Assembly (NCBI GenBank): GCA_029863065.1
Contig: JAOTWE010000006.1
Coordinates: 1 to 33,824, forward strand
Source of the DNA: Betaproteobacteria bacterium
GTDB taxonomy: Bacteria; Pseudomonadota; Gammaproteobacteria; Burkholderiales; SG8-39
Length of the DNA: 33,824 nt
Direction: 5' to 3'
How positions within the stretch are numbered: position 1 is the stretch's first letter; each line of letters begins with the position of its first letter. Under the pieces are notes generated by a model. It had not been told where the DNA came from. It saw only the letters and a list, made by a program, of their open reading frames with translations, and made no database searches. The position numbers were made by a program, and so were the translations under genes. Of the stretch, positions 9,264 to 33,178 are shown one piece after another.

Positions 9264-9277
9264 TTGACTTTCGTCAA
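9264..9277. promoter_or_regulatory. FNR/DNR-like palindrome TTGAC-TTTC-GTCAA between divergent genes
   Basis: Direct read. Centre 9270.5 is 40.5 bp from the CoA-ligase GTG (9230) and 39.5 bp from the GNAT ATG (9310). Downstream hexamer GACAAT at 9299-9304. Confidence 0.75.
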
Positions 9278-9309
9278 CCGGCGCCGCGCTGCGCTCGCGA
9301 CAATGCCCA

Positions 9310-9828
9310 ATGGTCGAGTTTCCCCTGCACCTTGTGCGCACGCGCAAGCTGGCCGACGGACGCACGGTGACCATCCGCCCGGTGCGTGCCGGGGACGAGC
9401 GCGCCGAAGCGCAATTCCTCGAGAGCCTGTCCGGCGAGAGCCAGCGCCTCAGGTTCCTGAATTACGTGCAGGCGCCGGGCGACCGGCTGGTGCACTTCTT
9501 CACGCACATCGACTACGACCGCCACATGGCCTTCGTCTGCGAAGCCGAGGGCGGCGAACTGGTCGGCGAGGCGCGCTACGTCGCCAACGCCGACGGCCGC
9601 AGCTGCGAGTTCGGCGTCGTGGTGGCGGACCACTGGCGCCATAGCGGCATGGCGCGGCTGCTCATGGACGCGCTCATCCGCGCCGCGCAGGCGCGCAAGC
9701 TCGAGACCATGGAAGGCCTGGTGCTGAGCGACAACCAGGACATGCTGAAGTTCGCCAGTGCGCTCGGCTTCGAGCTCACGCCCGACGCCGTGAAGCCGGC
9801 GCTCGTGCGCGTGACGAGGAAGCTTTGA
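9310..9828 (+). CDS. GNAT-family N-acetyltransferase
   Basis: 172 aa; [29 protein letters not shown]...[56 protein letters not shown]. Resembles the acetyltransferase domain of Pat-type protein acetyltransferases. Confidence 0.88.
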
Positions 9829-10532
9829 GCGCGCCGGTCTTCCAGGCCCGCGGCCTTACCAAGGTCTACCGAATGGGCGAAGCCGAGGTGCACGCGCTGC
9901 GCGGTGTCGACCTGGAGATCTTCGCCGGCGAGTTCATCGTGCTGCTCGGGCCCTCGGGCAGCGGCAAGTCGACGCTGCTCAACATCCTCGGCGGGCTGGA
10001 TACGCCGACCGCAGGCGACGTGCGCTTCCTCGAGCACCAGCTCACCGGCGCCGACGAGGCCGAGCTGACGCGCTACCGGCGCGAGCACGTGGGATTCGTG
10101 TTCCAGTTCTACAATCTCATTCCGAGCCTCACTGCGCAGGAGAATGTGGCGCTGGTGACCGACATTGCCGTCGCGCCGATGCCCGCGCACGAGGCGCTCG
10201 ATTGGGTGGGGCTCGGCGAGCGGCTGGATCACTTCCCCTCGCAGCTCTCGGGCGGCGAGCAGCAGCGCGTCGCCATTGCCCGCGCCATCGCCAAGCGCCC
10301 GCAGGTGCTGCTGTGCGACGAGCCCACCGGCGCGCTCGACTACGAGACCGGCAAGCTGGTGCTCGAGGTGATCGCCAAGATCAACGCCGAGCTCGGCACC
10401 ACGGCGATGGTCATCACGCACAACGCCGCGATCTCGGGCATGGCCGACCGCGTGCTGCGGCTGGGCAACGGCCGCATCGTGGGCGAGGAGAAGCCCGCGC
10501 GCAAGCTCACGCCGGCGGAGATTTCCTGGTGA
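9825..10532 (+). CDS. ABC transporter ATP-binding protein (MacB/LolD type)
   Basis: Walker [10 protein letters not shown], signature [16 protein letters not shown], Walker [13 protein letters not shown]. Confidence 0.96.
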
Positions 10533-12889
10533 AGTCCCTCGACCGCAAGCTGCTGCGCGACGTCTGGTTGCTCAAGACCCAGGTAGTGTCGATCGCGCTC
10601 GTCATCGCCTGCGGTATCGGCGGCTTCATCGGCTCACTGTCGACGCACAGCTCGCTGCTGTGGTCGCGCCAGCACTATTACGACACAGCGCGCTTCGCGC
10701 ACGTGTTCGCCACCGCCAAGCGCGCGCCGGCGTCGCTCGCAACGAAGCTGCGCGGGATCCCCGGCGTGGCGGAGGCCGAGACGCGCGTGGTGCGCGACGC
10801 GCAGCTCTCGCTGCCCGGCGTGGTGCCGCCGATGATCGCGCGCCTCATCGGCCTGGACTTTGCCCATCCGCCGGGCATGAACCGCCTGACGCTGAAGGGC
10901 GGGCGCTGGCCCGCGCCGGGCGCGAAGGGCGAAGTGGCGGTGAACCAGCGCTTCCTCGTGGCGCGCGGACTCAAGCTCGGCCAGACGATGACCGTGCTCC
11001 TCAACGGCAAGCTCGAGCGCCTCACGCTGGTCGGCACCGCGCTGAGTCCCGAGTACATCTACGCCACGCGCGGCGGCGGCATGCCCGACGACGAGTGGTT
11101 CGCGGTGCTGTGGATCGACGAGCGGTCGCTGGCCGCCGCATTCAACATGGAGGGCGCCTTCAACTCGGTACTGCTGCGGTTGCAGCACGGAACCTCGAGC
11201 GGGGTTGCGGTGGAAGCGCTCGATCACCTGCTCGAGCCCTACGGCGGGTTCGGCGCCGTCGGCCGCGAGGACCAGGTCTCCGACAAGATCCTCACGCAGG
11301 AGATCAACGAGCAGAAGATCTTCGGCACGGTGCTGCCGGCGGTGTTCCTGCTCGTCGCGGCCTTCATCCTCAACGTCGTGCTGCACCGGCAGGTGAACGC
11401 GCAGCGCGGCGAGATCGCCGCGCTGAAGGCGCTCGGCTACCCCGACCGCGACATCGCCGTGCACTATCTCAAGTTCGCCTCGGTGATCGTGCTGCTCGGC
11501 GTGGCGCTCGGCGTGTGGCTCGGTCACTGGCTGGGCAGCGCGATGACCGGGCTGTATACCGACTTCTTTCATTTCCCGGAGTTCCACTACCGGATGGAAC
11601 CGTGGCTCGTGCTCGCGGGCGCCGGCGCCACGCTGGCCGCCGCGTTCGGCGGGGCGCTCGCCGCGATCCACGGCGTGGTGCGCCTGCGCGCGGCGGAGGC
11701 CCTGCGTCCGCCAGCGCCGGCGGAGTTCCGGCCGCTGCTGGTCGAGCGCTTGGGCTACGGGCAGCTCCTCACGCCCTCGCAGCGCATGATCATGCGCAAC
11801 CTCGAGCGCAAGCCCTTGCGCGCGCTCATCACCGTGGCCGGCATCGCGGCTTCCGTGGCGATCCTCATCTCCGGCATCTTCTGGGGCGACGCCATCGAGT
11901 GGTTCATGGACGTGCAGTTCAACCGGGTGCAGCGCGCGCAGGTGAGCGTGGGCTTCGCCGAGGCGGTGCCGCGCGCGGCGCGCTGGGAGCTCGAGCGCCT
12001 GCCGGGGGTGAAACAGGTCGAGGTACAGCGCGCCATTCCCGTGCGCCTGCGCGCCGGCCATCGCAGCTACCGCACGGCCATCACGGGACTGGCCGACGAT
12101 GCGCAGCTGCAACGCATCCTCGACGCCGACCTGCACGCCGCGAAGCTCGTGCCGGGCGCGGTACTCCTCACCACGCGTCTGGCCGAGCGCCTGGCGGTCC
12201 GGCCCGGCGACACGATCCAGGCCGAGCTGCTGGAAGGCGAGCGCATCAAGGCCGGCTTGCGCGTTGGCGGCAGCGTGGACGAGATGGCGGGCATGAACGC
12301 CTGGATGCGCCTGGAAGACCTGAACCACCTGGCGCGCGAGGCAGACCTCGTCTCCGGCGCGGGCCTGCTGGTGGACCGCGACGGGGAGCGCGCGCTCCTC
12401 GAGCGGCTCAAGCAGATCCCGGCGGCGGCGGTGGTCATCGTCACCCGCACGCTGGTGGACACCTTCCGCGAGACGAGCGCGAAGAACGTGCTGTTCTTCA
12501 CCACGATCCTCACTGTCTTCGCCGCCACCATCGCGGTAGGGGTGGTGTACAACAACGCGCGCATCCAGCTCGCCGAGCGCGCCTGGGAGCTCGCCAGCCT
12601 GCGCGTACTCGGCTTCACGCGCGGCGAGGTGTCGGTGCTGCTGCTCGGCGAGCTCGGGCTGGAGATCGCCGCCGCGATCCCGCTCGGCTTCGTCGCCGGC
12701 TTCTGGCTGGCGGCGCTGCTCCTGTGGTTCATGCCGCACGACGTCATCTCCTTTCCGCTGGTCATCTATCCCGGCACCTACCTGTTCGCGGGCGCCGTTG
12801 TGGCCGCCGCCGGCGTGGCGAGCGCGCTCATCGTGCGCAATCGGATCGATAATCTGGACCTCGTCGGAGTGCTGAAGACACGCGAATGA
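10529..12889 (+). CDS. ABC transporter permease with FtsX-like domains
   Basis: Frame of ORF 10202..12889. GTG at 10529 overlaps the ATPase stop (GTGA). [40 protein letters not shown]... with two FtsX-like membrane regions. Confidence 0.9.
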
Positions 12890-14082
12890 AGACACGCAAC
12901 CAGATCCTGCTGAGCGTCGCCGTGCTGGCGGTGGCCGCGCTCGTCGCCTGGGCGCTGCGGCCGCAGCCGATCGCGGTGGAGACCGCCGCGGTCGCGCGCG
13001 GGCCCTTCGAGCAGACCATCGTCGACGACGGCAAGACGCGCGTGCGCGAGCGCTACGTGATCGCGGCGCCGCTCGCCGGGCGCGTGGCGCGCATCCGGCT
13101 CGAGCCCGGCGATCCTGTGCGTCTGGATCAGGTGGTGGCGCTGCTCGCGCCGACTGCGCCCGCCTTCCTCGATGCGCGCACCGCGCGCGAGCTGCAGGAG
13201 CGCATCGGCGCCGCGCAGGCGCAGGTGGCGCGCGCCCGTGCCGAGACGCTGAAGGTGCTGGCGCAGCGCGACCAGGCGCGCGCCGACCTCGAGCGCCAGG
13301 CGACGCTCGCCGCCGGCGGCTTCGTGTCCCCGACCGCACGCGAGCAGGCGGCGCTCGCACTGCGCACCGCGGAGCGCTCGGTGGATGCGGCGCGCTTCGC
13401 CGAGGACGCGGCCGGCCACGACCTGGCGCAGGCACGCGCGGCGCTCACGCGCTACAAGAGCGGCGACCCGACGGCGAAATGGGAAGTGACCTCGCCGGTG
13501 AACGGCTCCGTGCTGAAGGTAGTGCAGAAGAGCGAGAGCCCGGTGGCGCTCGGCGCGCCGCTGCTCGAAGTCGCCGACGCGCGCAGCCTCGAGGCGGTGG
13601 TGGACGTGCTGTCGCAGGACGCCGTCGCCATCCGCCCCGGCATGGCGGCACGCGTCGAGCTCGGCCAGGGCGTGGCGCCGCTGCCCGCGCTGGTGCGCCT
13701 GGTGGAGCCCGCGGCCTTCACCAAGGTGTCGGCGCTCGGCGTCGAGGAGCAGCGCGTCAACGTGATCCTCGACTTCGCCGGGCCGCTCGACCAGGTGTGG
13801 ACGATCGGCGACGCCTTCCGCGTCGAAGCGCATATCGTCACGTACCGCATCGAGGACGCGGTCAAGGTGCCGGTGGGGGCGCTGTTCCCCGAGGGCGACG
13901 GCTGGGCGGTGTTCGTAGTGCAGGACGACACCGCCGCGAAGCGCGCCGTCAAGGTGCCGCGCAGGAACGGCGTCGAGGCGATGGTCGAGGACGGGCTGAA
14001 ACCGGGCGAGCGCGTGATCGTCTATCCCTCCGATGCCCTGCGCGACGGCTCGACGATCGAAATCCCGGATGCACGACGGTGA
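12886..14082 (+). CDS. HlyD-like periplasmic adaptor / membrane fusion protein
   Basis: [78 protein letters not shown]; coiled-coil region then VPVGALFPEGDGWAVFVVQ. Confidence 0.9.
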   Translation: MKTRNQILLSVAVLAVAALVAWALRPQPIAVETAAVARGPFEQTIVDDGKTRVRERYVIAAPLAGRVARIRLEPGDPVRLDQVVALLAPTAPAFLDARTARELQERIGAAQAQVARARAETLKVLAQRDQARADLERQATLAAGGFVSPTAREQAALALRTAERSVDAARFAEDAAGHDLAQARAALTRYKSGDPTAKWEVTSPVNGSVLKVVQKSESPVALGAPLLEVADARSLEAVVDVLSQDAVAIRPGMAARVELGQGVAPLPALVRLVEPAAFTKVSALGVEEQRVNVILDFAGPLDQVWTIGDAFRVEAHIVTYRIEDAVKVPVGALFPEGDGWAVFVVQDDTAAKRAVKVPRRNGVEAMVEDGLKPGERVIVYPSDALRDGSTIEIPDARR

Positions 14083-14774
14083 GGGGCGATCTTGACGGGC
14101 TCGCAGCGGTGATCTTCGACCTGGACGGCGTGGTGACCCGCACCGCGCGCGTGCACGCGCGCGCCTGGAAGGAAACCTTCGATCCGCTGCTGGCGCCCGC
14201 AGGCCAAGCGCCGTTCGACCCGGCGGCGGACTATCTGCGCCATGTCGACGGCAAGCCGCGCGAGGACGGCGTGCGCAGCTTCCTCGCTGCGCGCGGCATC
14301 GCCGCGACCGAGGACGAGATACGCACCCTCGCGGCGCGCAAGGACGCGCTGTTTCACGAGCGACTCAAGGACGGCGTCGAAGTCTTCGCAACCTCGCTCG
14401 CGCTGATCAGGGATCTGCGCCGGCGCGGCGTACGCACCGCGGTAGTGTCGGCAAGCAGGAATTGCATCGAGGTGCTGCGTGCCGCCGGTGCGCTCGAGTT
14501 GTTCGACGCCCGCGTGGACGGCAACGACGCCGCGCGGCTCGGCCTCGCCGGCAAGCCGGCGCCGGACACGTTCCTGCACGCGGCGCGCCTGCTCGGCGTC
14601 GTGCCCGCGCGCGCCGCGGTCGTCGAGGACGCGCTCGCCGGGGTCGAGGCCGGGCGTGCGGGCGGCTTCGCCGAGGTGATCGGCGTCGACCGCGCCGGGC
14701 AGGCGGCGGCGCTGCGCGAGCACGGCGCGACGCGCGTGGTGCGCGATCTGGGCGAGCTGGAGCTCGCCGCGTGA
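14079..14774 (+). CDS. HAD-family beta-phosphoglucomutase-like hydrolase
   Basis: GTG at 14079 overlaps the HlyD stop. VIFDLDGVVTRTARVHARAWKETFD...GKPAPDTFLHAARLLGVVPARAAVVEDALAGVEAGRAGGF. Confidence 0.88.
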   Translation: MRGDLDGLAAVIFDLDGVVTRTARVHARAWKETFDPLLAPAGQAPFDPAADYLRHVDGKPREDGVRSFLAARGIAATEDEIRTLAARKDALFHERLKDGVEVFATSLALIRDLRRRGVRTAVVSASRNCIEVLRAAGALELFDARVDGNDAARLGLAGKPAPDTFLHAARLLGVVPARAAVVEDALAGVEAGRAGGFAEVIGVDRAGQAAALREHGATRVVRDLGELELAA

Positions 14775-17901: not shown

Positions 17902-17982
17902 CGGGCACCGCGACGGCCTGGAGCAGGCGAGCGCGGCGGCGGCCGAGCCGCGCAAGGATGCATTGCGCGTCAGCTTACGCGC

Positions 17983-17996
17983 TTGATCGGCGTCAA
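17983..17996. promoter_or_regulatory. FNR/DNR-like palindrome TTGAT-CGGC-GTCAA upstream of the nfeD locus
   Basis: Direct read. 21 bp before CACAAT (18018-18023). Centre is 40.5 bp from an ATG at 18030. Confidence 0.75.
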
Positions 17997-18029
17997 CCTC
18001 GCGGCGCGTGAGCTTGCCACAATATTCGC

Positions 18030-18083
18030 ATGCTGCTCATGCTGGGCATTGAAGCCGGCGGATTGAGCGCCGAGGCGTCGTGA
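18030..18083 (+). CDS. Putative leaderless small ORF (17 codons) coupled to nfeD
   Basis: ATG CTG CTC ATG CTG GGC ATT GAA GCC GGC GGA TTG AGC GCC GAG GCG TCG TGA = [17 protein letters not shown]. The stop overlaps the nfeD GTG at 18080 (GTGA). The ATG falls at the predicted +1 of the FNR-type promoter. Confidence 0.5.
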   Translation: MLLMLGIEAGGLSAEAS

Positions 18084-20111: not shown

Positions 20112-20112
20112 G

Positions 20113-21539: not shown

Positions 21540-22034
21540 CTAGCGGCTCCAGCGCACGCGCAGCAGGTTGTCGGCCTTGCTGTAGCGGTAGTCGAGCTCG
21601 CCCTTGTAGGCGTGCTTGAGCGCATCGCCGATGCGCCGCGCGAGGTGCGCGCCGGTCGTCGTCACCAGGACGCCCTGGCCGTCGGCCCCGATCGCCATGA
21701 TGCGCTCCAGCGGATGGCCGCGCTTCTCCGCCGCCTCGCAGCGGCGCACGCGCCCGAGGACTTCGTCGCGGTGCGCGTCGAAGAATTCGCCCTGCAGCGC
21801 CACGTAGCCGGCCGGGAAGCGGTCGCGGATGCGCTTGCACGCTGGGCACAGCCCGGCGTGCGCGCCCGCGGGCGCCGCGGCCCAGCTCCAGCGCCCGCGC
21901 CGCCACAGCGCGCCGCACTCCTTGCAGCGCGCGGGCTCGGGGAGCTTTCTCTTCGACTTGTAGGTATCGTGCACCACCAGCTCGAGCAGCTGCTCCTGCC
22001 GGTGCGTGCGGACGTGCTTGCGCGGAGCCTTCAT
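21540..22034 (-). CDS. BCAM0308-like conserved protein with two Cys-X2-Cys motifs
   Basis: MKAPRKHVRTHRQEQLLELVVHDTYKSKRKLPEPARCKECGALWRRGRWSWAAAPAGAHAGLCPACKRIRDRFPAGYVALQGEFF...; recalled similarity to the BCAM0308 family. Confidence 0.72.
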   Translation of the reverse strand: MKAPRKHVRTHRQEQLLELVVHDTYKSKRKLPEPARCKECGALWRRGRWSWAAAPAGAHAGLCPACKRIRDRFPAGYVALQGEFFDAHRDEVLGRVRRCEAAEKRGHPLERIMAIGADGQGVLVTTTGAHLARRIGDALKHAYKGELDYRYSKADNLLRVRWSR

Positions 22035-22067: not shown

Positions 22068-22081
22068 TTGACCTTGGTCAA
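22068..22081. promoter_or_regulatory. FNR/DNR-like palindrome TTGAC-CTTG-GTCAA between divergent genes
   Basis: Direct read. Centre 22074.5 is 40.5 bp from the ATG at 22034 (minus) and 54.5 bp from the ATG at 22129 (plus, with its own AAGGAGG). Confidence 0.75.
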
Positions 22082-22128: not shown

Positions 22129-22521
22129 ATGCCGCTGAACCGCAGGGAAACGATCGAGCTCGCCAGCGCCATCGAGGAGCGCCGCACGGCGCTCGCCGCG
22201 GAGATCCGCCGCGAAGTGGCGCGCGCGCGGAACGAGTCCTACGCCGAGTTGGCCGGCGCGGTGCACGACACCGGCGACGAAGCGCTCGCCGACCTGGTGG
22301 CCGACCTGGACAACGCCGAGGTCAAGCGCGACCTCACCGAGGTGCGCGAGCTCGAGGCCGCGCGCGCACGCATCGCCGACGGCAGCTACGGCGTGTGCGT
22401 GGACTGCGGTGCCGACGTTCCGGTGGCGCGCATGCGCGCCCAGCTCGCGGCGCGGCGCTGCATCGCCTGCCAGGGACAGTACGAGAAGACCTACGCCGTG
22501 GGTGAACGGCCGACGCTCTAG
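22129..22521 (+). CDS. DksA/TraR C4-type zinc finger family protein
   Basis: MPLNRRETIELASAIEERRTALAAEIRREVARARNESYAELAG...GSYGVCVDCGADVPVARMRAQLAARRCIACQGQYEKTYA; AAGGAGG Shine-Dalgarno at 22118-22124. Confidence 0.9.
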   Translation: MPLNRRETIELASAIEERRTALAAEIRREVARARNESYAELAGAVHDTGDEALADLVADLDNAEVKRDLTEVRELEAARARIADGSYGVCVDCGADVPVARMRAQLAARRCIACQGQYEKTYAVGERPTL

Positions 22522-23801
22522 GCGGTGCCGCGGTCGACCTCGTCGGCCAGGCGCCGCAGCGCCGGCGCAATCTCGACCACAGGGGCCGGCAGGCGTGCCA
22601 GCCCGGCGCGGCAGTGCTCGCGCATTTCGGCGAGCGCCGGCTGCGCCAACCGCCTGCCGCCGCGCATCACCGGTGTGAGCAGCGCCGCGCCCGGCTGCGC
22701 GTCGCCTTCCACCGTGACGACGTCGCGCTCGTAATGGCCCGCGGCATCGAGCTTTCGCCACACCTGCTTGCGCCCCGGCCAGGTCGCCTTGCCGGTGGAG
22801 CGTTTGCGGCGCGCGCGGCCCGCGTATTCCTGCAGCTTGTACACCGCGTCGAGGTAGGGGGCATCCGCCGAGGTGGTGAGGCTCGTGCCGACGCCGAAGC
22901 TGTCGATCGGCGCGCCCGCGGCGACGAGCGCAGCGATGCGCGCCTCGTCCAGGTTGCCGCTCGCGAAGATGATCGCGTCGCGATGCCCGGCGTCGTCGAG
23001 GATCCTGCGCACCTGGCGTGAAAGCGCGTCCAGGTCGCCGCTATCGAGGCGCACGCCCTTCAGCTTGCCCGGCGTGGCCGCGGCGCGGCGCGCGCCCTGC
23101 AGCGTGTCGTAGGTGTCGACGAGCAGCACCGCGTTGTTTGGAAATGCCGCCGCGAAATGCGCGAACGCCCCCGCCTCGCTCTCGTGCGCCTGGACGAACG
23201 AGTGCGCCATGGTGCCGAACACGGGGATGCCGAAGCGCGGCGCGGCGAGCGCGGTGGCGCTGCCGTCGAAGCCGGCGAGGTATGCGGCGCGCGCCGCGAG
23301 CAGGCCGGCTTCCGCGCCGTGCGCGCGACGCAGCCCGAAGTCGATCAGCCCCTTGCCCGGCGCGGCGCGCCGCACGTGCGCCGCCTTGGAGGCGATCACC
23401 GTCTGGAAGTGCACGAGGTTGAGCAGGCGCGTCTCGACGAGCTGCGCTTCGGGCATGGGCGCGGCGACGCGCAGGATCGGCTCGTCGGGGAAGAACAGCG
23501 TCCCCTCGGGCATGGCATGCACGTCGCCCGTGAAGCGCAACTGCTCGAGGCGCGTGGCGAAGTCCGCGCGGAAGTGCCCCGAGCGCTCGATCCATTGCAG
23601 GTCCTCGGGTGCGAAGCGCAGGCCTTCGAGATACGCCAGCGCCTGCTCGAGCCCCGCGGCAACGAGGAATTCGCGCCCGGGCGGGAGCTTTCTCACGAAC
23701 AACTCGAACACCGCGGTTTCGGTCATGTCCTGCTCGTAGTACGCCTGCAGCATGGTGAGCTGGTACAGGTCGGTGAGCAGAGGGCTGGTGAGCGCGTTCA
23801 T
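22518..23801 (-). CDS. pncB: Nicotinate phosphoribosyltransferase
   Basis: MNALTSPLLTDLYQLTMLQAYYEQDMTETAVFELFVRKLPPGREFLVAAGLEQALAYLEGLRF...FGTMAHSFVQAH...GVRLDSGDLDALSRQVRRILDDAG...GVGTSLTTS. Confidence 0.93.
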   Translation of the reverse strand: MNALTSPLLTDLYQLTMLQAYYEQDMTETAVFELFVRKLPPGREFLVAAGLEQALAYLEGLRFAPEDLQWIERSGHFRADFATRLEQLRFTGDVHAMPEGTLFFPDEPILRVAAPMPEAQLVETRLLNLVHFQTVIASKAAHVRRAAPGKGLIDFGLRRAHGAEAGLLAARAAYLAGFDGSATALAAPRFGIPVFGTMAHSFVQAHESEAGAFAHFAAAFPNNAVLLVDTYDTLQGARRAAATPGKLKGVRLDSGDLDALSRQVRRILDDAGHRDAIIFASGNLDEARIAALVAAGAPIDSFGVGTSLTTSADAPYLDAVYKLQEYAGRARRKRSTGKATWPGRKQVWRKLDAAGHYERDVVTVEGDAQPGAALLTPVMRGGRRLAQPALAEMREHCRAGLARLPAPVVEIAPALRRLADEVDRGTA

Positions 23802-23834
23802 GAACGCACCTTACGTCCGCAGCGCGCCGCGCGC

Positions 23835-23848
23835 TTGACGCAGGTCAA
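23835..23848. promoter_or_regulatory. FNR/DNR-like palindrome TTGAC-GCAG-GTCAA between divergent genes
   Basis: Direct read. Centre 23841.5 is 40.5 bp from the minus-strand ATG (23801) and 42.5 bp from the plus-strand ATG (23884). Confidence 0.75.
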
Positions 23849-23883
23849 CGGCCGCGGGAGCGCCGGCGGCACACTGCGTGACG

Positions 23884-26289
23884 ATGAACTCCCCGCTGCC
23901 CGCCTCGGCGCTGCGACGGCGCTGCGATCCGCAGCGGCTCGGATTTGCCACGACCGCCGCGCTGCAGGGCCTGGAGCGCGCGCCCGGCCAGGCGCGCGCG
24001 GAAAGCTCGCTCGCCTTCGGCATCGGCATGCGGCGCGAGGGCTATCACCTCTTCGCCATGGGGCCCGAGGGCTACGGCCGTCATAGCCTGGTGCGCGCGC
24101 GCCTCGAGGAAGAGGCGCGCCGGCGCGAGGCGCCCGCCGACTGGTGCTACGTCTTCAATTTCGACGCCCCGCACCGGCCGCGCGCGCTCAAGTTGCCCGC
24201 CGGGCGCGCGAACGCCTTCCGCGACGCGATGGCGCGCCTCGTAGAGGAGCTCGCCGCCGCGATCGCCGCCGCCTTCGAGACCGACGAGTACCGCAACCGC
24301 CACCGCGAAATCGAGACCGAGCTCGCCGAGCGCCAGGAACGCGCGCTGAACGACCTCGGCGCGCGCGCGCGCGGCGACGGCATTGCGCTGGTGCGCACGC
24401 CGAGCGGCTTCGGCTTCGGCCCGTTCAGCAAGGCGGGCGACGGCGTCATGGAGCCCGAGGAGTTCGGCAAGCTGGAGGCCGCCGCGCAGCAGCGCTTCGA
24501 AAAGCGCATCGGCGAGCTGCAGAAGGAGCTCGGCGACCTCCTGCACCAGATGCCGAAATGGCGCCGCGAAGCGCTGGACAGGATGCGCGGGCTGGATCGC
24601 GACGTGACGCGCGCGGCGGTGAACAGCCTGATCGACGAGCTGAAGGCGACATACGCGGCCCTGCCCCACGTGCAGGAATACCTGGAGCGCGTGAAGGCCG
24701 ACACGCTGGCGAACGCCGCGGTGTTCCGCCAGGCGAAGGACGGCGAGGCGCCGACGCTGTTCGGCATCCCGTTGCCGCGTCCCGAGGGCTCCGAGGGGCC
24801 GTTCCGCCGCTACGCGGTGAACGTGCTCATCGAGCATTCCGGCGCCAGCGGCGCACCGGTGGTGACCGAGGACCATCCGAGCCATGCGGCGCTCATCGGC
24901 CGCATCGAGCACGTGGCGCAGATGGGCGCCCTGGTCACCGACTTCACCCTCATTCGCGCGGGCGCGCTGCACCGCGCGAATGGCGGCTATCTGGTGCTCG
25001 ATGCCCTCAAGGTGCTCACCCAGCCCTATGCCTGGGAGGCGCTGAAGCGCGCCCTGCGCGCGCGCGCCATCGACGTGCGCACGCTCGGCCAGGAGCTCGG
25101 CATCCTGTCGACCGTGTCGCTCGAGCCCGAGCCGATTCCCCTCGACGTGAAGCTCGTGCTGGTGGGCGAGCGCCATCTGTACTACCTGCTGCACGCCTGG
25201 GACCCGGAGTTCGCCGAGCTGTTCAAGGTGGCGGTGGACTTCGAGGAGGATATGCCGCGCGGCGACGACGACGACGCGCGCTTCGCGCGGCTCATCGCCG
25301 GCTGCGTGGCGCGCGAGAAGCTGCGGCCGCTGGATGCCGCGGCGGCGGCGCGCGTCATCGAGCATCAGGCGCGCGACGCGGGCGACGCGCACAAGCTCTC
25401 GGTGCGCATGCAGGGCCTGGTCGACCTGCTGCGCGAGGCCGACTACTGGACGGGCGTCGCCGGGCGCGAGACGGTCGGCGTGGAGGACGTGCGCAAGGCG
25501 ATCGACGCCCAGGTCGCGCGCGCCGACCGGCTGCGCGAGCGCCTGAAGGAGACGATCGTGCGCGGCACGCTGCTCATCGACACCGCCGGCAGCCGCGTCG
25601 CGCAGGTGAACGCTCTGGCGGTGCTGCAGCTCGGTGACTTCGCCTTCGGCTCGCCGCATCGCATCACGTCGCGCGTACGGCTCGGCTCGGCGGGCGTCGT
25701 CGACATCGAGCGCGAGTCCGAGCTCGGCGGCCCGATTCATTCCAAGGGCGTGCTGATCCTCTCGGGCTACCTGGCAGGGCGCTACATGCCGACGAAGCCG
25801 CTGTCGCTGTCGGCGAGCCTGGTCTTCGAGCAGAGCTACGGCGGCGTCGAGGGCGACAGCGCCTCGTCCGCGGAGCTCTACGCGCTCCTGTCGGCGCTCG
25901 CCGGCGCGCCGCTCAAGCAGTCGCTCGCCGTCACCGGCTCGGTCAACCAGCACGGCGACGTGCAGGCGATCGGCAGCGTGAACGAGAAGATCGAGGGATT
26001 CTTCGACCTGTGCCGGGCGCGCGGCCTGACGGGCGAGCAGGGCGTGCTGATACCGCAGGCGAACGTCATGCACCTCATGCTGCGCGAGGATGTCGTGCAG
26101 GCGGTCGAGGAAGGCAGGTTCGCCGTGTACGCGGTGCGCAGCGTGGACGAAGGCGTGGAACTCCTCACCGGCGTGCCGGCCGAGGAAATCCACGCGCGGG
26201 TCGAGGCGCGGCTCGCGGAGTTCGCGGCGAAGGCGCGCGCCTTCGCCGCGGGCGGCGAAAGACCATGGCAGCCCGGCAAGAAGAAGTGA
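23884..26289 (+). CDS. Lon-related ATP-dependent protease (AAA_32-type / LonB-like)
   Basis: MNSPLPASALRRRCDPQRLGFATTAALQGLERAPGQARAESSLAFGIGMRREGYHLFAMGPEGYGRHSLV...; Lon proteolytic domain with EQSYGGVEGDSASSAELYALLSALAGAPLKQSLAVTGSVNQHGDVQAIGSVNEKIEGFF (Ser-Lys dyad). An alternative GTG at 23878 is possible. Confidence 0.93.
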   Translation: MNSPLPASALRRRCDPQRLGFATTAALQGLERAPGQARAESSLAFGIGMRREGYHLFAMGPEGYGRHSLVRARLEEEARRREAPADWCYVFNFDAPHRPRALKLPAGRANAFRDAMARLVEELAAAIAAAFETDEYRNRHREIETELAERQERALNDLGARARGDGIALVRTPSGFGFGPFSKAGDGVMEPEEFGKLEAAAQQRFEKRIGELQKELGDLLHQMPKWRREALDRMRGLDRDVTRAAVNSLIDELKATYAALPHVQEYLERVKADTLANAAVFRQAKDGEAPTLFGIPLPRPEGSEGPFRRYAVNVLIEHSGASGAPVVTEDHPSHAALIGRIEHVAQMGALVTDFTLIRAGALHRANGGYLVLDALKVLTQPYAWEALKRALRARAIDVRTLGQELGILSTVSLEPEPIPLDVKLVLVGERHLYYLLHAWDPEFAELFKVAVDFEEDMPRGDDDDARFARLIAGCVAREKLRPLDAAAAARVIEHQARDAGDAHKLSVRMQGLVDLLREADYWTGVAGRETVGVEDVRKAIDAQVARADRLRERLKETIVRGTLLIDTAGSRVAQVNALAVLQLGDFAFGSPHRITSRVRLGSAGVVDIERESELGGPIHSKGVLILSGYLAGRYMPTKPLSLSASLVFEQSYGGVEGDSASSAELYALLSALAGAPLKQSLAVTGSVNQHGDVQAIGSVNEKIEGFFDLCRARGLTGEQGVLIPQANVMHLMLREDVVQAVEEGRFAVYAVRSVDEGVELLTGVPAEEIHARVEARLAEFAAKARAFAAGGERPWQPGKKK

Positions 26290-26768: not shown

Positions 26769-26770
26769 TG

Positions 26771-26804
26771 TGCGGTTTCTCGCTCGTGCAGTCTTGAAAC
26801 CGCA
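26771..26804. repeat. Perfect 9-bp inverted repeat TGCGGTTTC-N16-GAAACCGCA
   Basis: Direct read: TGCGGTTTC 26771-26779 and GAAACCGCA 26796-26804, in the convergent intergenic region. Could be a bidirectional terminator. Confidence 0.6.
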
Positions 26805-26858
26805 TGGACCGGCGAGAGTCCGCTTACGGCCAGAAGGCGACGTTCGCGAATGGACGTG

Positions 26859-27734: not shown

Positions 27735-27846
27735 GATTTGCCCGGCAATGCCGCGCAGGGTCGCTGCGCCTCAAGCTACGCCTTCGCGAATCATGCGCCT
27801 TATTTGAGCCGACGGGTACACAGGCGTGCAACAAACGAATAGGATA

Positions 27847-29556
27847 TCAATCAGCATGCGCTGCGCGCGCCAGCCAGCGCCTGAGCTCCGCGAGCGGCCG
27901 CGTATTGAGGACGTCCTTTCTCTCCAGCCACCCGCGCCGCGCCTGCCCGATCCCGAAGCGCAGCACGTCGAAGCCGTCCACGCCGTGCGCGTCCGAGCTC
28001 ACGGCGACCAAAACGCCCTCCGCCTTCGCCATGCGGCAGTGCGCATCAGTCAGGTCGAGGCGGTCCGGGTGCGCGTTCAGCTCCAGCGCTACGCCGAGCC
28101 GCTGTGCCTGCCTCACGATCGCGAGCATGTCGACGTCGTAAGGCGCGCGCTCCTCGATCAAGCGCCCGCTGGGATGCGCGAGGATGGAGAACAGCGGGTT
28201 TGCCATCGCTTTCAGGATGCGCTCGGTCTGCCGCGCGCGCGGCAGATCGAACTTGCCGTGCACCGCGCCCACCACGAGGTCGAGCTTCTCGAGGATCGAG
28301 TCCGGCAGATCGAGGCTGCCGTCCTCGAGGATGTCCACCTCGATCCCCTTGAGCAGCGTGATGCCCGAGAGCGTCTTGTTCAGCGCGTCGATCTCCGCGA
28401 TCTGCTTCGAAAGGCGCTGCGGATCGAGGCCGTGCGCCATCGTCAGCCGCCGCGAGTGCTCAGTGATGGCGAGGTACTGCAGGCCGTGCGCATTTGCCGC
28501 CAGCGCCATCTCGCGAAGCGTATTGCGGCCGTCGGTGGCGCGCGTGTGCGCGTGCAGGTCGCCCCTGAGATCCGCGAGCTCGACGAGCCGCGGCAGCTCG
28601 CCGCGGCGCGCCGCCTCCAGCTCGCCCGCTGCCTCGCGCAGCTCGGGCTCGATGTAGGGCAGCCCCACCGCGGCATAGACCGACGCCTCCGTCTCGCCCG
28701 CGACGCGGCGCTTTCCCTTCCATACGCCGTACTCGTTGATCTTGAGCCCGCGCGCGATGCCGAGCTTGCGCACCGCGATGTTGTGCGCTTTGGATCCCGT
28801 GAAGTAGTGCAGCGCCGCGCCGAAGGACGCCTTGGGCACTACGCGCAGGTCACACTGCACGCCGCTCGCGAGAATCGCGCTCGCGCGCGTGGTGCCCTGC
28901 GCGGTTACGTGCTTCACCTCGCCGTAGCCCGCAAAGCGCTTGACGATCTGCGCGGGCTTGTCGGAAACGACCAGGAAGTCCAGGTCGCCGACGGTCTCCT
29001 TCATGCGCCGGTAGCTCCCGGCGACCACCGCGCCGAGATGCCTCGCGAAGGGCTCGGCGTACTGCGCGGCCACCGCGAGCTTGAAGCGCTGCTTCTTCTG
29101 CGCGTGCGCGCGCGCCGCTTCCAGGAGCCGCTGGGCGGTCTTCTCGCCGAAGCCGGGGATATCCGCGAGCTTTCCCGCGCGCGCCGCGCGCTCGAGTGCG
29201 TCGAGCGAGGAGATGCGCCGCTCGTAAAGCGCGCGCAGGCGCTTGGGGCCGAGGCCCGGAAGCCGCAGCAGCTCCGTGATGCCGGCGGGATACTTCTTGC
29301 GCAGCCGCTCGAGCAGCGCGCAGCGGCCGGTCGCCGCAATCTCGTGGATCTTGCCGTCGAGGTCCGCGCCGATGCCGGGAAGCTTCGGCAGATCCTGCCC
29401 TGCGGCGAGCGCAGCCGGGAGGTCGAGGGAGAGTCCCGCAACGACGCGCGCCGCGTTCCGGTAGGCGCGCACGCGGAACGGGTTTTCGTCGCCGAGCTCG
29501 AGCAGCTCCGCGATCTCCTCGAACGCGGCCGCGATGTCGGCGTTGTGGACCGGCAT
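27847..29556 (-). CDS. polX: PolX-type DNA polymerase beta family protein with C-terminal PHP domain
   Basis: MPVHNADIAAAFEEIAELLELGDENPFRVRAYRNAARVVAGLS..., LPGIGADLDGKIHEI, VAGSYRRMKETVGDLDFLVVSDKP, then PHP segment DLRGDLHAHTRATDGRNTLREMALAANAHGLQYLAITEHSRRLTMAHGLD. Confidence 0.94.
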   Translation of the reverse strand: MPVHNADIAAAFEEIAELLELGDENPFRVRAYRNAARVVAGLSLDLPAALAAGQDLPKLPGIGADLDGKIHEIAATGRCALLERLRKKYPAGITELLRLPGLGPKRLRALYERRISSLDALERAARAGKLADIPGFGEKTAQRLLEAARAHAQKKQRFKLAVAAQYAEPFARHLGAVVAGSYRRMKETVGDLDFLVVSDKPAQIVKRFAGYGEVKHVTAQGTTRASAILASGVQCDLRVVPKASFGAALHYFTGSKAHNIAVRKLGIARGLKINEYGVWKGKRRVAGETEASVYAAVGLPYIEPELREAAGELEAARRGELPRLVELADLRGDLHAHTRATDGRNTLREMALAANAHGLQYLAITEHSRRLTMAHGLDPQRLSKQIAEIDALNKTLSGITLLKGIEVDILEDGSLDLPDSILEKLDLVVGAVHGKFDLPRARQTERILKAMANPLFSILAHPSGRLIEERAPYDVDMLAIVRQAQRLGVALELNAHPDRLDLTDAHCRMAKAEGVLVAVSSDAHGVDGFDVLRFGIGQARRGWLERKDVLNTRPLAELRRWLARAAHAD

Positions 29557-29572
29557 GGCCCTACTTGGCCGG

Positions 29573-29851
29573 TCAGTGGTCCTCTATGCGGGGAACGCCA
29601 TCCTCGGCGGGCACGCCGGTGTCGGGGTCGATGTAGTCCGAGATGCCGATCTCCTTCTCGGCCTCTTCCAGCGTCTCGCCCGGCTCCGATGTGGATTCGC
29701 CGGCCTCCATGTCCTGCACCGCCTCGAGCAGCGTGGCGAAGGGCCCGTACTCGCGGCCGCCGTCTTTCGACTGCCAGTAGACGCCGTCGGGACGCTCGAC
29801 GATGCGCGTGCGGTCGTATTCGGGCGGGGTCTCGGGGATCGCCTTGCTCAT
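29573..29851 (-). CDS. Hypothetical small acidic protein
   Basis: 92 aa MSKAIPETPPEYDRTRIVERPDGVYWQSKDGGREYGPFATLLEAVQDMEAGESTSEPGETLEEAEKEIGISDYIDPDTGVPAEDGVPRIEDH; coherent composition, co-directional with polX. Confidence 0.75.
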   Translation of the reverse strand: MSKAIPETPPEYDRTRIVERPDGVYWQSKDGGREYGPFATLLEAVQDMEAGESTSEPGETLEEAEKEIGISDYIDPDTGVPAEDGVPRIEDH

Positions 29852-29863
29852 CGCGCCCCAATG

Positions 29864-29935
29864 TTACCTGCAAACGAGCACCGGTACGCGCGAATTCGCG
29901 ACCGTCTTCAGCGTCTGGCTGCCGAGTGCCGGCGC
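29864..29935 (-). pseudogene. Remnant C-terminus of a universal stress protein
   Basis: Minus-strand translation ...PALGSQTLKTVANSRVPVLVCR* ends at TAA (29864-29866) and matches the typical UspA C-terminal LGS-x(n)-PVLV-x-R pattern. No Usp body upstream; the FNR-like box begins about 10 bp away. Confidence 0.6.
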
Positions 29936-29944
29936 GGCGCGGGT

Positions 29945-29958
29945 TTGACCGAGATCAA
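29945..29958. promoter_or_regulatory. FNR/DNR-like palindrome TTGAC-CGAG-ATCAA
   Basis: Direct read. Centre 29951.5 is 39.5 bp from the ATG at 29991 (plus). Confidence 0.7.
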
Positions 29959-29990
29959 ACCGGCGCCCGCCGGCCGTGCCAGCCTGCCGC

Positions 29991-30152
29991 ATGGCCATCC
30001 AACCGCTCACGCGACGCGTGGCGGCAGGGGCGCTCGGCGCCTTCGGCGTGGCACTCATGCTGCTCACTCCGGACACGCGCGCCGGGCTTGCGCTGCTCGC
30101 ACTCGCAGTGGCGATCGAGGTCGCGGGTATCCTGATCGAGCTCAAGCGCTAG
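29991..30152 (+). CDS. Small (53 aa) predicted membrane protein
   Basis: MAIQPLTRRVAAGALGAFGVALMLLTPDTRAGLALLALAVAIEVAGILIELKR*; two hydrophobic segments. Below the ORF-track length cut-off. Sits 39.5 bp from an FNR-like box centre. Confidence 0.6.
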   Translation: MAIQPLTRRVAAGALGAFGVALMLLTPDTRAGLALLALAVAIEVAGILIELKR

Positions 30153-30949
30153 GGCACCCACCCGCCCCACATGTCGTAGAGCGTGAGCGCGATCTCGAAC
30201 GCGATCAGCGCCACGATGTACCACTCGACGCGCAGCGCGTGGCGCGCGCCCATCAGGTCGACCAGCGTGCGCTCGGTGCGCGCGATGAGCTCCAGCTTGC
30301 GGTCGAGCGCGGCGAGGCGCTCGCGGATCTCGAATTCGTCTTCCAGCAGCGCGTTGAGCCCCTCCAGCCGCGGGTGGTCCCAGAGCAGCTCGGGCTTGTC
30401 GCCGACCTCGGCGCGCCCGACCATGCGGCTCTCGATGAGCAGCAGTGCGCCGATCCGCTTCAGGTGCTCGCGCGTGCGCCCGCCGATGCGACCTTCGCGC
30501 TCGAGCGTCAGGGCGAGCGGCTCGATGCGGTCGAAGTCGGCCGCGAGCCGCGCCTCGTAGTGGGCGAGCACCACGCTCTTGGACAGCGCCTCGGCGACCA
30601 GCTGCAACCGCTCGAGGCTCGCCGATTGCAGGACAAGCGCCCCTTCCTGCAAGCCCTCGGGCCGCGAGGCGTCGACGCGCACCTCGAGCTCTTCCACTTC
30701 GGGGCTGCGTGCGCGCTGCTCGTCGGGCAGGGCGAGCCGCGCGCGAAGGTCGCGCTCGTCCTCGGGCGAGGCAGCGAAAAGCACCGCCACGCCGTAGCGG
30801 AACAGCACCGCGAGGCCGCCGCCGCCGAGCTTCGTCGTGAGCGGCGCCCGGGCCAGGGTCTCGGCCTCGGGCCAGTTGCGCAGGTCGAGGCGCGTACCGA
30901 GCAGCAGCGCGCGCGCGCGGAAGGCGCGCGACGTGAAGGCGTATTCCAT
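30149..30949 (-). CDS. RMD1/DUF155 family protein
   Basis: MEYAFTSRAFRARALLLGTRLDLRNW...GLAVLFRYGVAVLFAAS...ASLERLQLVAEALSKSVVLAHYE...LLEDEFEIRERLAALDRKLELIARTERTLVDLMGARHALRVEWYIVALIAFEIALTLYDM; layout of the RMD1/YagE family with C-terminal TM. Confidence 0.85.
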   Translation of the reverse strand: MEYAFTSRAFRARALLLGTRLDLRNWPEAETLARAPLTTKLGGGGLAVLFRYGVAVLFAASPEDERDLRARLALPDEQRARSPEVEELEVRVDASRPEGLQEGALVLQSASLERLQLVAEALSKSVVLAHYEARLAADFDRIEPLALTLEREGRIGGRTREHLKRIGALLLIESRMVGRAEVGDKPELLWDHPRLEGLNALLEDEFEIRERLAALDRKLELIARTERTLVDLMGARHALRVEWYIVALIAFEIALTLYDMWGGWVP

Positions 30950-30982
30950 GGCGCCATTGCGCCATGCACGCGGCCCGCGCGC

Positions 30983-30996
30983 TTGACTGAGGTCAA
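30983..30996. promoter_or_regulatory. FNR/DNR-like palindrome TTGAC-TGAG-GTCAA between divergent genes
   Basis: Direct read. Centre 30989.5 is 40.5 bp from the minus ATG (30949) and 41.5 bp from the plus ATG (31031). Hexamer TCTAAT at 31018-31023, 5/6 to TATAAT. Confidence 0.8.
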
Positions 30997-31030
30997 GGGG
31001 CGAAGAGATGGCGGCGGTCTAATGGACCGT

Positions 31031-31207
31031 ATGCCCTGGAACCAGGCCTATTACCCGGCCTCGATGAAGCGTCTGCCGTTGCGCGTGCGCGCGAAGGCGA
31101 TCGAGATCGCCAATGCCCTGCTGGAATCAGGGCGCCCCGAAGGCCAGGCGATCCGCATCGGCATCGCGCAGGCGAAGGCATGGGCCACGCGCCACAACCC
31201 CCAGTGA
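31031..31207 (+). CDS. YdaT-like small stress protein
   Basis: 58 aa MPWNQAYYPASMKRLPLRVRAKAIEIANALLESGRPEGQAIRIGIAQAKAWATRHNPQ; strong recalled resemblance to YdaT-type general stress proteins. An ATG at 31022 would overlap the predicted -10. Confidence 0.82.
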   Translation: MPWNQAYYPASMKRLPLRVRAKAIEIANALLESGRPEGQAIRIGIAQAKAWATRHNPQ

Positions 31208-32286
31208 AGCTGTTCCTCTGCGGCGACGTCATGACCGGCCGTGGCATCGACCAGGTGCTCGCCGTCCCCTGCGATTCGGCGATCGACGAGCCTTGGGTGA
31301 AGGACGCGCGCGATTACGTGGCGCTCGCCGAGTGCGCGCACGGCCCGATCCCGCGCGCCGCCGCGCCGGAGTACGTCTGGGGCGACGCGCTCGAGGCGCT
31401 CGAGGCGGAGCGGCCCGATGTGCGCATCGTGAATCTCGAGACTGCCGTGACAACGAGTCCAGAGCGCACGCCGAAGGGCATCAATTACCGCATGAACCCG
31501 GCGAACGTCGCCTGCCTGCTGGCCGCGCGCATCGACTGCTGCGTGCTTGCCAACAACCACGTGCTCGACTGGGGCGCGCGCGGCCTGGAAGAGACGCTCG
31601 ACACGCTGCATGGCGCCGGCATGCGCACCGCGGGCGCGGGACGCAACGCGGCGGAAGCGGCTGCGCCGGCGATCCTGGAGACGCGGGCCCGCGGACGCGT
31701 GCTCGTCTACGCCTACGGCCTGGAAAGCTCGGGCGTACCCGCGGCCTGGGCGGCTGGAGAGCGCCGGTCCGGGGTGAGCTTCCTGCCTGATCTGTCCGAG
31801 GCGAGCGCCGATGCCGTCGCCCGCCACGTATCCGACATGAAGCGCGCCGGCGACATCGCGGTGGTATCGATGCACTGGGGACCGAACTGGGGCTACGAGG
31901 TCGAGCGCGAGCGGCGCGCCTTCGCGCACCGCCTCGTGGACGCGGGGGCGGCGGACCTGGTGCACGGCCATTCCGCACATCATCCCGGCGCGCTCGAGCT
32001 GCACCACGAGCACCTCATCCTCTACGCCTGCGGCGACTTCCTCAACGACTACGAGGGGATCGAGGGCCACGAGTCCTTCCACCCGGATCTCGTGCTCATG
32101 TACCTGGCCACGCTCGACGAGGCGGGCGGCGCGCTGCGCGAGCTCTCGATGCGGCCGATGCGTGTGCGGCGCTTCCGCCTCGAGCGCGCTGGCGAAGGCG
32201 ACGCCGAGTGGCTCGCCGCCACGTTGCGGCGGGTGAGCGGATTGGACATCGAGCGCGCGCAGAACAACCGCTTGCTCCTGCAATGA
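31204..32286 (+). CDS. CapA-family (poly-gamma-glutamate synthesis / metallophosphatase-like) protein
   Basis: GTG at 31204; LFLCGDVMTGRGIDQVL, VRIVNLETAVT, DCCVLANNHVLDWGARGLEETLDTL, VVSMHWGPNWG, DLVHGHSAHHPGALELHHEHLILYACGDFLNDY. Confidence 0.93.
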   Translation: MKLFLCGDVMTGRGIDQVLAVPCDSAIDEPWVKDARDYVALAECAHGPIPRAAAPEYVWGDALEALEAERPDVRIVNLETAVTTSPERTPKGINYRMNPANVACLLAARIDCCVLANNHVLDWGARGLEETLDTLHGAGMRTAGAGRNAAEAAAPAILETRARGRVLVYAYGLESSGVPAAWAAGERRSGVSFLPDLSEASADAVARHVSDMKRAGDIAVVSMHWGPNWGYEVERERRAFAHRLVDAGAADLVHGHSAHHPGALELHHEHLILYACGDFLNDYEGIEGHESFHPDLVLMYLATLDEAGGALRELSMRPMRVRRFRLERAGEGDAEWLAATLRRVSGLDIERAQNNRLLLQ

Positions 32287-33173
32287 CGCTCACCGCACTC
32301 ATCGCCGGCGACGCGCACCCCGCGCTCGCGAAGGACATCGCGCGCGAGTCGGGCCTCGCGCTGCTGCCGGCGCAGATTGGCGCCTTCGCCGACGGCGAAA
32401 CGCGCGTGAGAATCGATGCCGAGGTGCGCGGCATGCATCTCGGCATCGTGCAGCCGACCCCAGCCCCGGTCGGCGAGCGCCTCATGACGCTCGCGCTGCT
32501 CGCCGACGCCGCGCGCGCCGCGGGCGCCGCGAGCGTCACGGCGCTCGTGCCCTACTTCGGCTTCGCGCGCCAGGATGTGCGCGGCGCACCGGGCGAGCCG
32601 CGTTCGGCGCAATTCGCCGCGCGCCTGCTCGCCGCCGCGGGCATCGAGCGCATGGTGACGCTGGAGCTGCACTCGAGCGCGCTGGAGAGCGCCTTTCCCA
32701 TGCCGGTCACACAGCTGCGCGCCGACGACGCCGTGCTGCCGCTCCTGCGCGGGCGCGGCTATACCGTGGTCTCGCCCGACGCGGGCGGCATGAAGCGCGC
32801 ACAGCGCTACGCCATCGCTCTCGGCGCGCCGCTCGCGGCAGTGGCGAAGCAGCGCACCGGCACGGACGTCGCCGTGCCGCTGCAGGTGCTGGGCGAAGTG
32901 CGCGGCGCCACCTGCCTGCTGGTCGACGACATGGCGAGCACCGGGCGCACGCTCGCAGGCGCGGCGCAGGCGCTCGCCGCCGCGGGCGCGACCGAGATGC
33001 ACGCCTTCTTCGTGCACGCCGTGATGGCGCCCGGAGCACTGGAGCGCCTGCGCGCGGCCGGCGTGCGCCGCGTTCTGACGACCGACAGCGTGCGCCCCGT
33101 GGCGGAGCCGGGGGTCGAGGTGGTGACGGTGGCGCCGCTCTTCGCCGCCGCGCTGCGCGCCGGCTTGCGCTAG
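32283..33173 (+). CDS. Ribose-phosphate pyrophosphokinase-like protein (PRPP synthetase paralogue)
   Basis: IGAFADGETRVRID, VTALVPYFGFARQDVRGAPGEPRSAQFAARLLAAAGIERMVTLELHSS, VVSPDAGGMKRAQRYA, ATCLLVDDMASTGRTLAGAAQAL. Confidence 0.92.
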   Translation: MTLTALIAGDAHPALAKDIARESGLALLPAQIGAFADGETRVRIDAEVRGMHLGIVQPTPAPVGERLMTLALLADAARAAGAASVTALVPYFGFARQDVRGAPGEPRSAQFAARLLAAAGIERMVTLELHSSALESAFPMPVTQLRADDAVLPLLRGRGYTVVSPDAGGMKRAQRYAIALGAPLAAVAKQRTGTDVAVPLQVLGEVRGATCLLVDDMASTGRTLAGAAQALAAAGATEMHAFFVHAVMAPGALERLRAAGVRRVLTTDSVRPVAEPGVEVVTVAPLFAAALRAGLR

Positions 33174-33178
33174 ATCAA
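33165..33178. promoter_or_regulatory. Degenerate FNR/DNR-like site TTGCG-CTAG-ATCAA
   Basis: One half-site perfect (ATCAA), the other 3/5. Centre 33171.5 is 40.5 bp from an in-frame GTG (33212) with GAGAAT at 33200-33205. Confidence 0.4.

What the first reader, a model, noticed from the sequence alone, without database searches (positions are those of the whole stretch)
9264..33178. A network of FNR/DNR-like palindromes at fixed distance from start codons implies bidirectional class-II promoters with leaderless mRNAs
Six near-perfect 14-bp palindromes (9264, 17983, 22068, 23835, 29945, 30983) and one degenerate copy (33165) all lie in promoter positions. I noticed none inside CDSs, although I scanned by eye only. 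Distances from box centre to the first base of the start codon are: CoA ligase 40.5, GNAT 39.5, ORF before nfeD 40.5, BCAM0308-like 40.5, pncB 40.5, Lon-like 42.5, 53-aa membrane protein 39.5, RMD1 40.5, YdaT-like 41.5, phosphoribosyltransferase (GTG) 40.5. The dksA-like gene is the exception at 54.5, and it has a strong Shine-Dalgarno. FNR-family class-II activators bind around -40.5/-41.5, so the predicted +1 coincides with the start codon. Hexamers resembling -10 elements sit 21 bp from the box edge (GACAAT, CACAAT, TCTAAT, GAGAAT, TAAGGT). In four divergent pairs a single symmetric box could serve both directions. A whole stress island wired for leaderless expression from shared boxes appears unusual.
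Basis: partly seen in the sequence, partly recalled or inferred. Interest (0 to 1): 0.88.

Follow-up and report, generated by a model that had tools for sequence, protein, structure and literature searches.

The report
Leaderless genes switched by oxygen-sensor boxes
In an uncultured betaproteobacterium, a cluster of low-oxygen survival genes is read from shared, mirror-symmetric FNR-type control sites placed so that the messenger RNA should begin exactly at the start codon, without the usual ribosome landing site, and related bacteria keep the same arrangement.

Summary
All six boxes, the degenerate seventh and all eleven quoted distances reproduce. The genome has 53 TTGAY-N4-RTCAA boxes, against 1 for the reversed motif. 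Around them only one other element stands out, a -10-like hexamer 28.5-33.5 nt from the box centre, which predicts +1 at about 40-42 nt. ATG is enriched at 39.5-42.5 nt (20 seen, 4.3 expected genome-wide; 8 seen, 0.36 expected in the window).

None of 21 genes whose start lies there has a clear Shine-Dalgarno. Of 15 box genes starting further out, 14 do. In relatives the spacing is kept for GNAT, CoA ligase, BCAM0308-like, pncB, Lon-like, the 53-aa protein, RMND1-like, YdaT-like and the phosphoribosyltransferase.

The genome encodes an FNR with the Cys cluster plus two FtrB/FixK-like regulators. The window belongs with lxa-type low-oxygen islands (NF040826), and similar leaderless clusters occur in other families.

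Corrections: most FNR boxes elsewhere in the genome drive SD-led genes, or no clear gene, so leaderless expression marks a subset. The ORF before nfeD is unproven. Regulator identity, transcription starts and translation are untested. Known parts in a new arrangement: a new variant.

The parts
9264..9277 (.). FNR-type palindrome TTGACTTTCGTCAA shared by CoA ligase (left) and GNAT (right)
   Evidence: orthologous region in L115 and L116 keeps a box with 40.5/40.5 and 40.5/39.5 spacing
7521..9230 (-). AMP-binding CoA ligase, GTG start 40.5 from box centre, predicted leaderless
   Evidence: Pfam PF00501; GTG and 40.5 spacing kept in L115 and L116; no SD
9310..9828 (+). GNAT acetyltransferase, ATG 39.5 from box centre, predicted leaderless
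   Evidence: PF00583; 40.5 in L115 and 39.5 in L116; no SD
17983..17996 (.). FNR-type palindrome upstream of nfeD
   Evidence: no box upstream of nfeD homologues in relatives
18030..18083 (+). 17-codon ORF, ATG 40.5 from box centre, overlapping the nfeD GTG (18080) by 4 nt; possible leaderless leader peptide
   Evidence: spacing only; coding status unproven; nfeD itself has a GAGG upstream
22068..22081 (.). FNR-type palindrome shared by the lxa BCAM0308-family gene (left) and dksA-like (right)
   Evidence: TTGACCTTGGTCAA identical in the congener locus L033
21540..22034 (-). lxa BCAM0308-family protein, ATG 40.5, predicted leaderless
   Evidence: NF040826, 195 bits against cut-off 100; 40.5 in L033; 63.5 with a leader in L116
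22129..22521 (+). dksA-like gene, ATG 54.5 with AAGGAGG leader; leaderless orthologue at 41.5 in L033 and L116
   Evidence: PF01258
23835..23848 (.). FNR-type palindrome shared by pncB (left) and Lon-like (right)
   Evidence: congener L182/L279 keeps the box with 41.5/42.5
22518..23801 (-). nicotinate phosphoribosyltransferase (pncB), ATG 40.5, predicted leaderless
   Evidence: PF17767/PF04095; N-terminus aligned from residue 1 in most relatives
23884..26289 (+). Lon-like protease, ATG 42.5, predicted leaderless
   Evidence: PF13654, PF20436; 42.5 in L182 and L019
29945..29958 (.). FNR-type palindrome upstream of the 53-aa membrane protein; in G003 it also serves the 93-aa gene on the left
29991..30152 (+). 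53-aa membrane protein, ATG 39.5, predicted leaderless
   Evidence: homologues with box and start at 40.5-41.5 in G003, L115, G039 and G400
30983..30996 (.). FNR-type palindrome shared by RMND1/DUF155 (left) and YdaT-like (right)
30149..30949 (-). RMND1/DUF155-family protein, ATG 40.5, predicted leaderless
   Evidence: PF02582; 40.5 in L233 of another genus
31031..31207 (+). 58-aa YdaT-like protein, ATG 41.5, predicted leaderless
   Evidence: 41.5 in L241 (G003) and 40.5 in L226 (another genus)
33165..33178 (.). degenerate box TTGCGCTAGATCAA overlapping the stop codon of the upstream ribose-phosphate pyrophosphokinase-like ORF
   Evidence: identical in G003 (L279), start at 40.5 there too; upstream ORF PF13793
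33212..33824 (+). phosphoribosyltransferase, GTG 40.5 (runs off window), predicted leaderless
   Evidence: PF00156; ATG at 40.5 from the same degenerate box in G003

Best explanation
The boxes are operators of an FNR/ANR- or DNR-type activator. Bound at about -41.5, it activates sigma-70 RNA polymerase at class-II promoters, with a -10 about 21 bp from the box edge. In this low-oxygen (lxa-type) island the start codon coincides with +1 within about a nucleotide or two, so the mRNAs begin with AUG or GUG and are translated leaderlessly. In at least three boxes of the window the palindrome has a -10 and a start codon on both sides, so one box can drive two divergent leaderless genes. Shown from sequence: boxes, -10 signal, spacing, absence of SD, conservation. 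Inferred: binding by FNR/DNR, low-oxygen induction, TSS positions, leaderless translation, simultaneous two-way activation.
For: 53 boxes against 1 for the reversed motif. -10-like conservation peak at 28.5-33.5. ATG excess at 39.5-42.5 in genome, window and independently fetched loci. 21 genes at this spacing lack an SD (mean -2.8 kcal/mol for the ten in the window) while 14 of 15 leadered box genes have one (mean -7.9). Orthologues keep box and spacing for nine genes. Natural switches between +1 start and SD leader with the box and -10 kept: dksA-like and BCAM0308-like. FNR with CSSC-N5-C, 223 bits to NF008365 (cut-off 228), and two FtrB/FixK-like regulators encoded. Typical low-oxygen targets (hemN, U32 peptidase, NnrS-like, hemerythrin) share the layout in the same genome (NnrS named from its sequence only). 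Congeners: 38 leaderless-spaced against 10 control-spaced matches. BCAM0308 family (NF040826) ties the island to the B. cenocepacia lxa locus.
Against: No transcript, binding or translation data exist here. Most FNR boxes elsewhere in the genome drive SD-led genes or no clear gene. Outside the genus the family-wide excess is small (314 against 271, p = 0.08; the control spacing itself contains real SD-led starts). Many orthologues in more distant relatives have no box at all. Two starts (CoA ligase, phosphoribosyltransferase) are GTG, a poorer leaderless start in E. coli (general knowledge). Which of several regulators acts is unknown.
Confidence: 0.85

Rival explanations
1. The boxes are class-II FNR/DNR promoters, but the transcripts are not leaderless: the annotated starts are wrong, or a second upstream promoter supplies a leader with an SD.
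For: Most FNR-box genes elsewhere in this genome have SD leaders. A few genes have in-frame downstream starts.
Against: Homology runs from the first codon for pncB, BCAM0308-like, GNAT, RMND1-like, YdaT-like and the 53-aa protein. No clear SD precedes these starts. The -10-like element lies just upstream of the start codon. Spacing is kept over divergent sequence.
Confidence: 0.08
2. The palindromes are operators of a different regulator, such as CRP or FixK without redox sensing, or of a repressor, so the low-oxygen link is wrong although the promoter geometry is right.
For: Two other superfamily members without the N-terminal Cys cluster, plus a more divergent one, are encoded; half-site sequence alone does not separate FNR, DNR and FixK.
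Against: TTGAY-N4-RTCAA is the FNR/DNR/FixK consensus, not that of CRP (established knowledge). Co-regulated genes include hemN and a hemerythrin. A repressor would not need a fixed -41.5 position and conserved -10 spacing.
Confidence: 0.12
3. The constant distance is a by-product of compact divergent intergenic regions in a small genome, not selection for leaderless starts.
For: Intergenic regions here are short (about 80-110 bp between divergent starts).
Against: The same spacing occurs at one-sided boxes and in other families. The distribution is split between 39.5-42.5 without SD and farther starts with SD, rather than broad. The ATG excess is confined to four positions; adjacent 4-nt bins are near background.
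Confidence: 0.04

Closest known systems
Class-II FNR/ANR promoters (for example the fnrS sRNA promoters of E. coli and N. gonorrhoeae, box at -41.5; PMC3032703)
   Same: Box consensus, box centre at -41.5, -10 spacing. The gonococcal FnrS transcript even begins with AUG, but a fusion showed that it is not translated.
   Different: Here +1 coincides with start codons of conserved protein genes, repeatedly and often on both sides of one box.
Low-oxygen-activated (lxa) locus of Burkholderia cenocepacia (Sass 2013, summarised in PMC6127331 and PMC3759415)
   Same: BCAM0308 family (NF040826); low-oxygen gene cluster; an FtsH-like gene is a box target in this genome and the lxa locus has one (BCAM0309); FNR-type regulator BCAM0049 proposed. 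USPs are present in related islands.
   Different: No universal stress protein gene was identified in this window; gene order differs. No report of leaderless expression or shared boxes at lxa was found in the papers read.
Leaderless mRNAs in proteobacteria (72 genes with TSS exactly at the start codon in B. cenocepacia J2315, enriched for regulators; PMC4603805)
   Same: A promoter motif lies directly upstream of the start codon in place of an SD.
   Different: There scattered and not linked to FNR in that paper; here concentrated in one regulon and island.
Fnr regulons of Herbaspirillum seropedicae (PMC5934665)
   Same: Betaproteobacterial FNR regulon with several Fnr paralogues.
   Different: The searched text contains no mention of leaderless mRNAs, start-codon distance or 41.5.

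Membership tests
FNR-family class-II activated promoters | TTGAY-N4-RTCAA box | tested here: met
   six exact copies in the window, 53 against 1 genome-wide
FNR-family class-II activated promoters | -10 element at a spacing that puts the box centre near -41.5 | tested here: met
   -10-like conservation peak at 28.5-33.5 from the centre
FNR-family class-II activated promoters | FNR/ANR/DNR regulator encoded in the genome | tested here: met
   FNR with Cys cluster (223 bits, just under the 228 cut-off of NF008365) and two FtrB/FixK-like regulators
FNR-family class-II activated promoters | regulator- and oxygen-dependent transcription | not testable with these tools
   needs mutants, ChIP-seq or RNA-seq
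Leaderless mRNAs | no Shine-Dalgarno upstream of the start | tested here: met
   0 of 21 with a clear SD; AAGG upstream of pncB lies at the expected -10 region; 14 of 15 leadered controls have an SD
Leaderless mRNAs | TSS at or within a few nt of the start codon | not testable with these tools
   predicted from -10 position only
lxa-type low-oxygen islands | BCAM0308-family protein | tested here: met
   NF040826, 195 bits against cut-off 100
lxa-type low-oxygen islands | universal stress proteins and low-oxygen induction | tested here: inconclusive
   no USP domain among the window proteins scanned, not every ORF was scanned; USP-like N-termini in related islands G039, G400, G017; induction not testable

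The most novel reading that the evidence does not exclude
Leaderless expression is a selected feature of FNR/DNR-driven low-oxygen islands in Betaproteobacteria: one symmetric box gives two leaderless mRNAs, and the layout ties these messages to a ribosome state found at low oxygen, for instance initiation by 70S or formerly hibernating ribosomes. Some island genes are themselves ribosome-linked (a hibernation-factor-like gene, RMND1-like, and perhaps the weakly NMD3-like BCAM0308 protein).
Probability: 0.25. Interest if true: 0.85.

Novelty: new variant of a known kind. Interest (0 to 1): 0.66.

Why it matters
It would link a classical oxygen-sensing transcription circuit to a non-canonical way of starting translation, at the scale of an island rather than a single gene. 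It gives a simple sequence rule (box centre to start codon of about 40-42) that corrects start-codon annotation and predicts 5' ends in uncultured bacteria. Orthologous promoters that differ only in having or lacking an SD leader give natural pairs for asking why a cell would prefer leaderless messages at low oxygen.

Tried and rejected
Class-wide scan (274 genomes): no general excess of leaderless spacing over the control spacing (tallies 247 against 253 genomes with a match), so it is not a general feature of FNR boxes; the window's genome had the highest leaderless-spaced count I saw in the table (21). Family-wide excess outside the genus is only 1.16-fold. The control spacing (59.5-62.5) is not neutral because SD-led starts fall there, so these ratios are conservative. 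nfeD homologues were fetched to test the 17-codon ORF: none has a box, so no test. BCAM0308 orthologues across the order mostly lack boxes within 220 bp. The ISME J 2013 lxa paper is not in the library, and supplementary TSS tables could not be read. Literature searches found no description of a leaderless FNR regulon, which is weak negative evidence only.
Full report
WHAT IS THERE. The window is contig C331 of a 3.07 Mb, 94% complete betaproteobacterial metagenome-assembled genome (kinship from the titles). All eleven box-centre to start-codon distances reproduce: ten at 39.5-42.5 and dksA-like at 54.5. Gene identities were confirmed for GNAT, CoA ligase, nfeD, pncB, dksA-like and Lon-like, for the BCAM0308 family (NF040826), and for RMND1/DUF155 and the phosphoribosyltransferase.

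IS IT MORE THAN CHANCE. The genome holds 53 such boxes against 1 for the motif read backwards. In 52 boxes (104 half-sites), counting ATG in every frame with no gene calling, ATG is in excess at 39.5-42.5 (20 seen, 4.3 expected) and at 32.5-33.5, where it overlaps the end of the -10. Adjacent four-base bins are near background. The excess remains without the window (12 against 3.9) and in loci fetched only by pncB similarity without the same genus (26 against 9.9). A base-by-base information profile shows one strong element between the box and the start codon, a -10-like hexamer with A at 29.5, A at 31.5 and T at 33.5. With the usual distance from -10 to +1 (established knowledge) this places +1 at about 40-42.

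SD TEST. Ten window genes and eleven genes elsewhere in the genome begin at 39.5-43.5. None has a clear SD; pncB has AAGG at the position of the expected -10. Of fifteen genes whose start lies 59-100 nt from a box centre, fourteen have an SD. Mean hybridisation energy is -2.8 kcal/mol for the ten window genes and -7.9 for the leadered set. The leadered starts were picked by hand, which may favour SD-bearing ones; the leaderless set was chosen by position only.

CONSERVATION. In the congener G003 (contig loci L019, L033, L182, L241, L279, L280) boxes with starts at 40.5-42.5 occur at pncB, Lon-like, BCAM0308-like, dksA-like, the 53-aa protein, a 93-aa gene, YdaT-like and the phosphoribosyltransferase. 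L115 and L116 keep the CoA ligase (GTG, 40.5 in both) and GNAT (40.5, 39.5) arrangement. RMND1-like is at 40.5 in L233 and YdaT-like at 40.5 in L226, both other genera. The 53-aa membrane protein has box and start at 40.5-41.5 in L115 and in two other families of the order, G039 and G400.

NATURAL SWITCHES. With box and -10 kept, dksA-like starts at +1 in L033 and L116, but behind an AAGGAGG leader in the window. BCAM0308-like starts at +1 in the window and L033, but 63.5 nt from the box in L116. The 92-aa gene left of the 29945 box is at 40.5 in G003 but at 100.5 here, with the sequence next to its ATG still similar. These pairs argue that promoter geometry is fixed and that the leader is what comes and goes.

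REGULATOR. Five genes pass the Crp-type HTH cut-off. One has the N-terminal CSSC-N5-C cluster and matches the FNR model at 223 bits (cut-off 228). Two others lie on box-bearing contigs, C169 and C263, and match FtrB/FixK-like models well below their cut-offs; a fourth is more divergent. Other leaderless-spaced targets in the genome include HemN, FtsH-like, U32 peptidase, COX15, hemerythrin, a NuoEF-like protein, CheR and a CBS-BON protein, plus an NnrS-like protein named from its sequence only. I therefore read the boxes as an FNR/DNR low-oxygen regulon; which paralogue acts is not known.

HOW FAR IT REACHES. In the genus, leaderless-spaced matches outnumber control-spaced ones 59 to 18 (38 to 10 without this genome). 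In the rest of the family the ratio is 314 to 271. A stricter order-wide pattern with a -10 placed G039 (9), G400 (8) and this genome (8) at the top of 300 genomes. In both others the matches cluster near BCAM0308 homologues. Because these islands were picked by that pattern, they show recurrence, not frequency. Leaderless-spaced genes there include a DksA-like, a MgtE-like, an MlaC, an AMP-binding and an L,D-transpeptidase protein.

VERDICT. FNR class-II promoters, leaderless mRNAs and lxa-type islands are each known. Their systematic combination, two leaderless genes per box, was not found in the papers I could search. That is a new variant of a known kind. What remains is experimental: TSS, binding, oxygen response, translation.

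Noticed in passing
window 29573-29851 (-) and L279 box 10862: The 92-aa gene is leaderless-spaced (40.5) from the shared box in G003, but in the window its box is 100.5 nt away while the sequence next to the ATG, including a -10-like TAACAT, is still similar; about 60 bp appear to have been gained.
   Followed up: partly
window 18030-18083: A 17-codon ORF at leaderless spacing overlaps the nfeD GTG by 4 nt with a GAGG before it; could be a coupled leader peptide.
   Followed up: partly
window 33165-33178: The degenerate box overlaps the stop codon of a ribose-phosphate pyrophosphokinase-like ORF and is identical in the congener G003.
   Followed up: yes
window 29991-30152; L274 13644; L275 3874: A family of roughly 50-aa membrane proteins with no Pfam match is repeatedly found behind an FNR box at start-codon spacing in at least three families of the order.
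   Followed up: partly
window 9230 (CoA ligase): A GTG start at +1 is kept as GTG in L115 and L116, which is unexpected if leaderless GUG is a poor start.
   Followed up: no
window 21540-22034, 30149-30949; L274 16428-16760: Several box-driven genes look ribosome-linked: weak NMD3 similarity (20.6 bits, below the 24.9 cut-off), RMND1/DUF155, and a hibernation-factor-like S30AE gene in a related island (leadered there).
   Followed up: no
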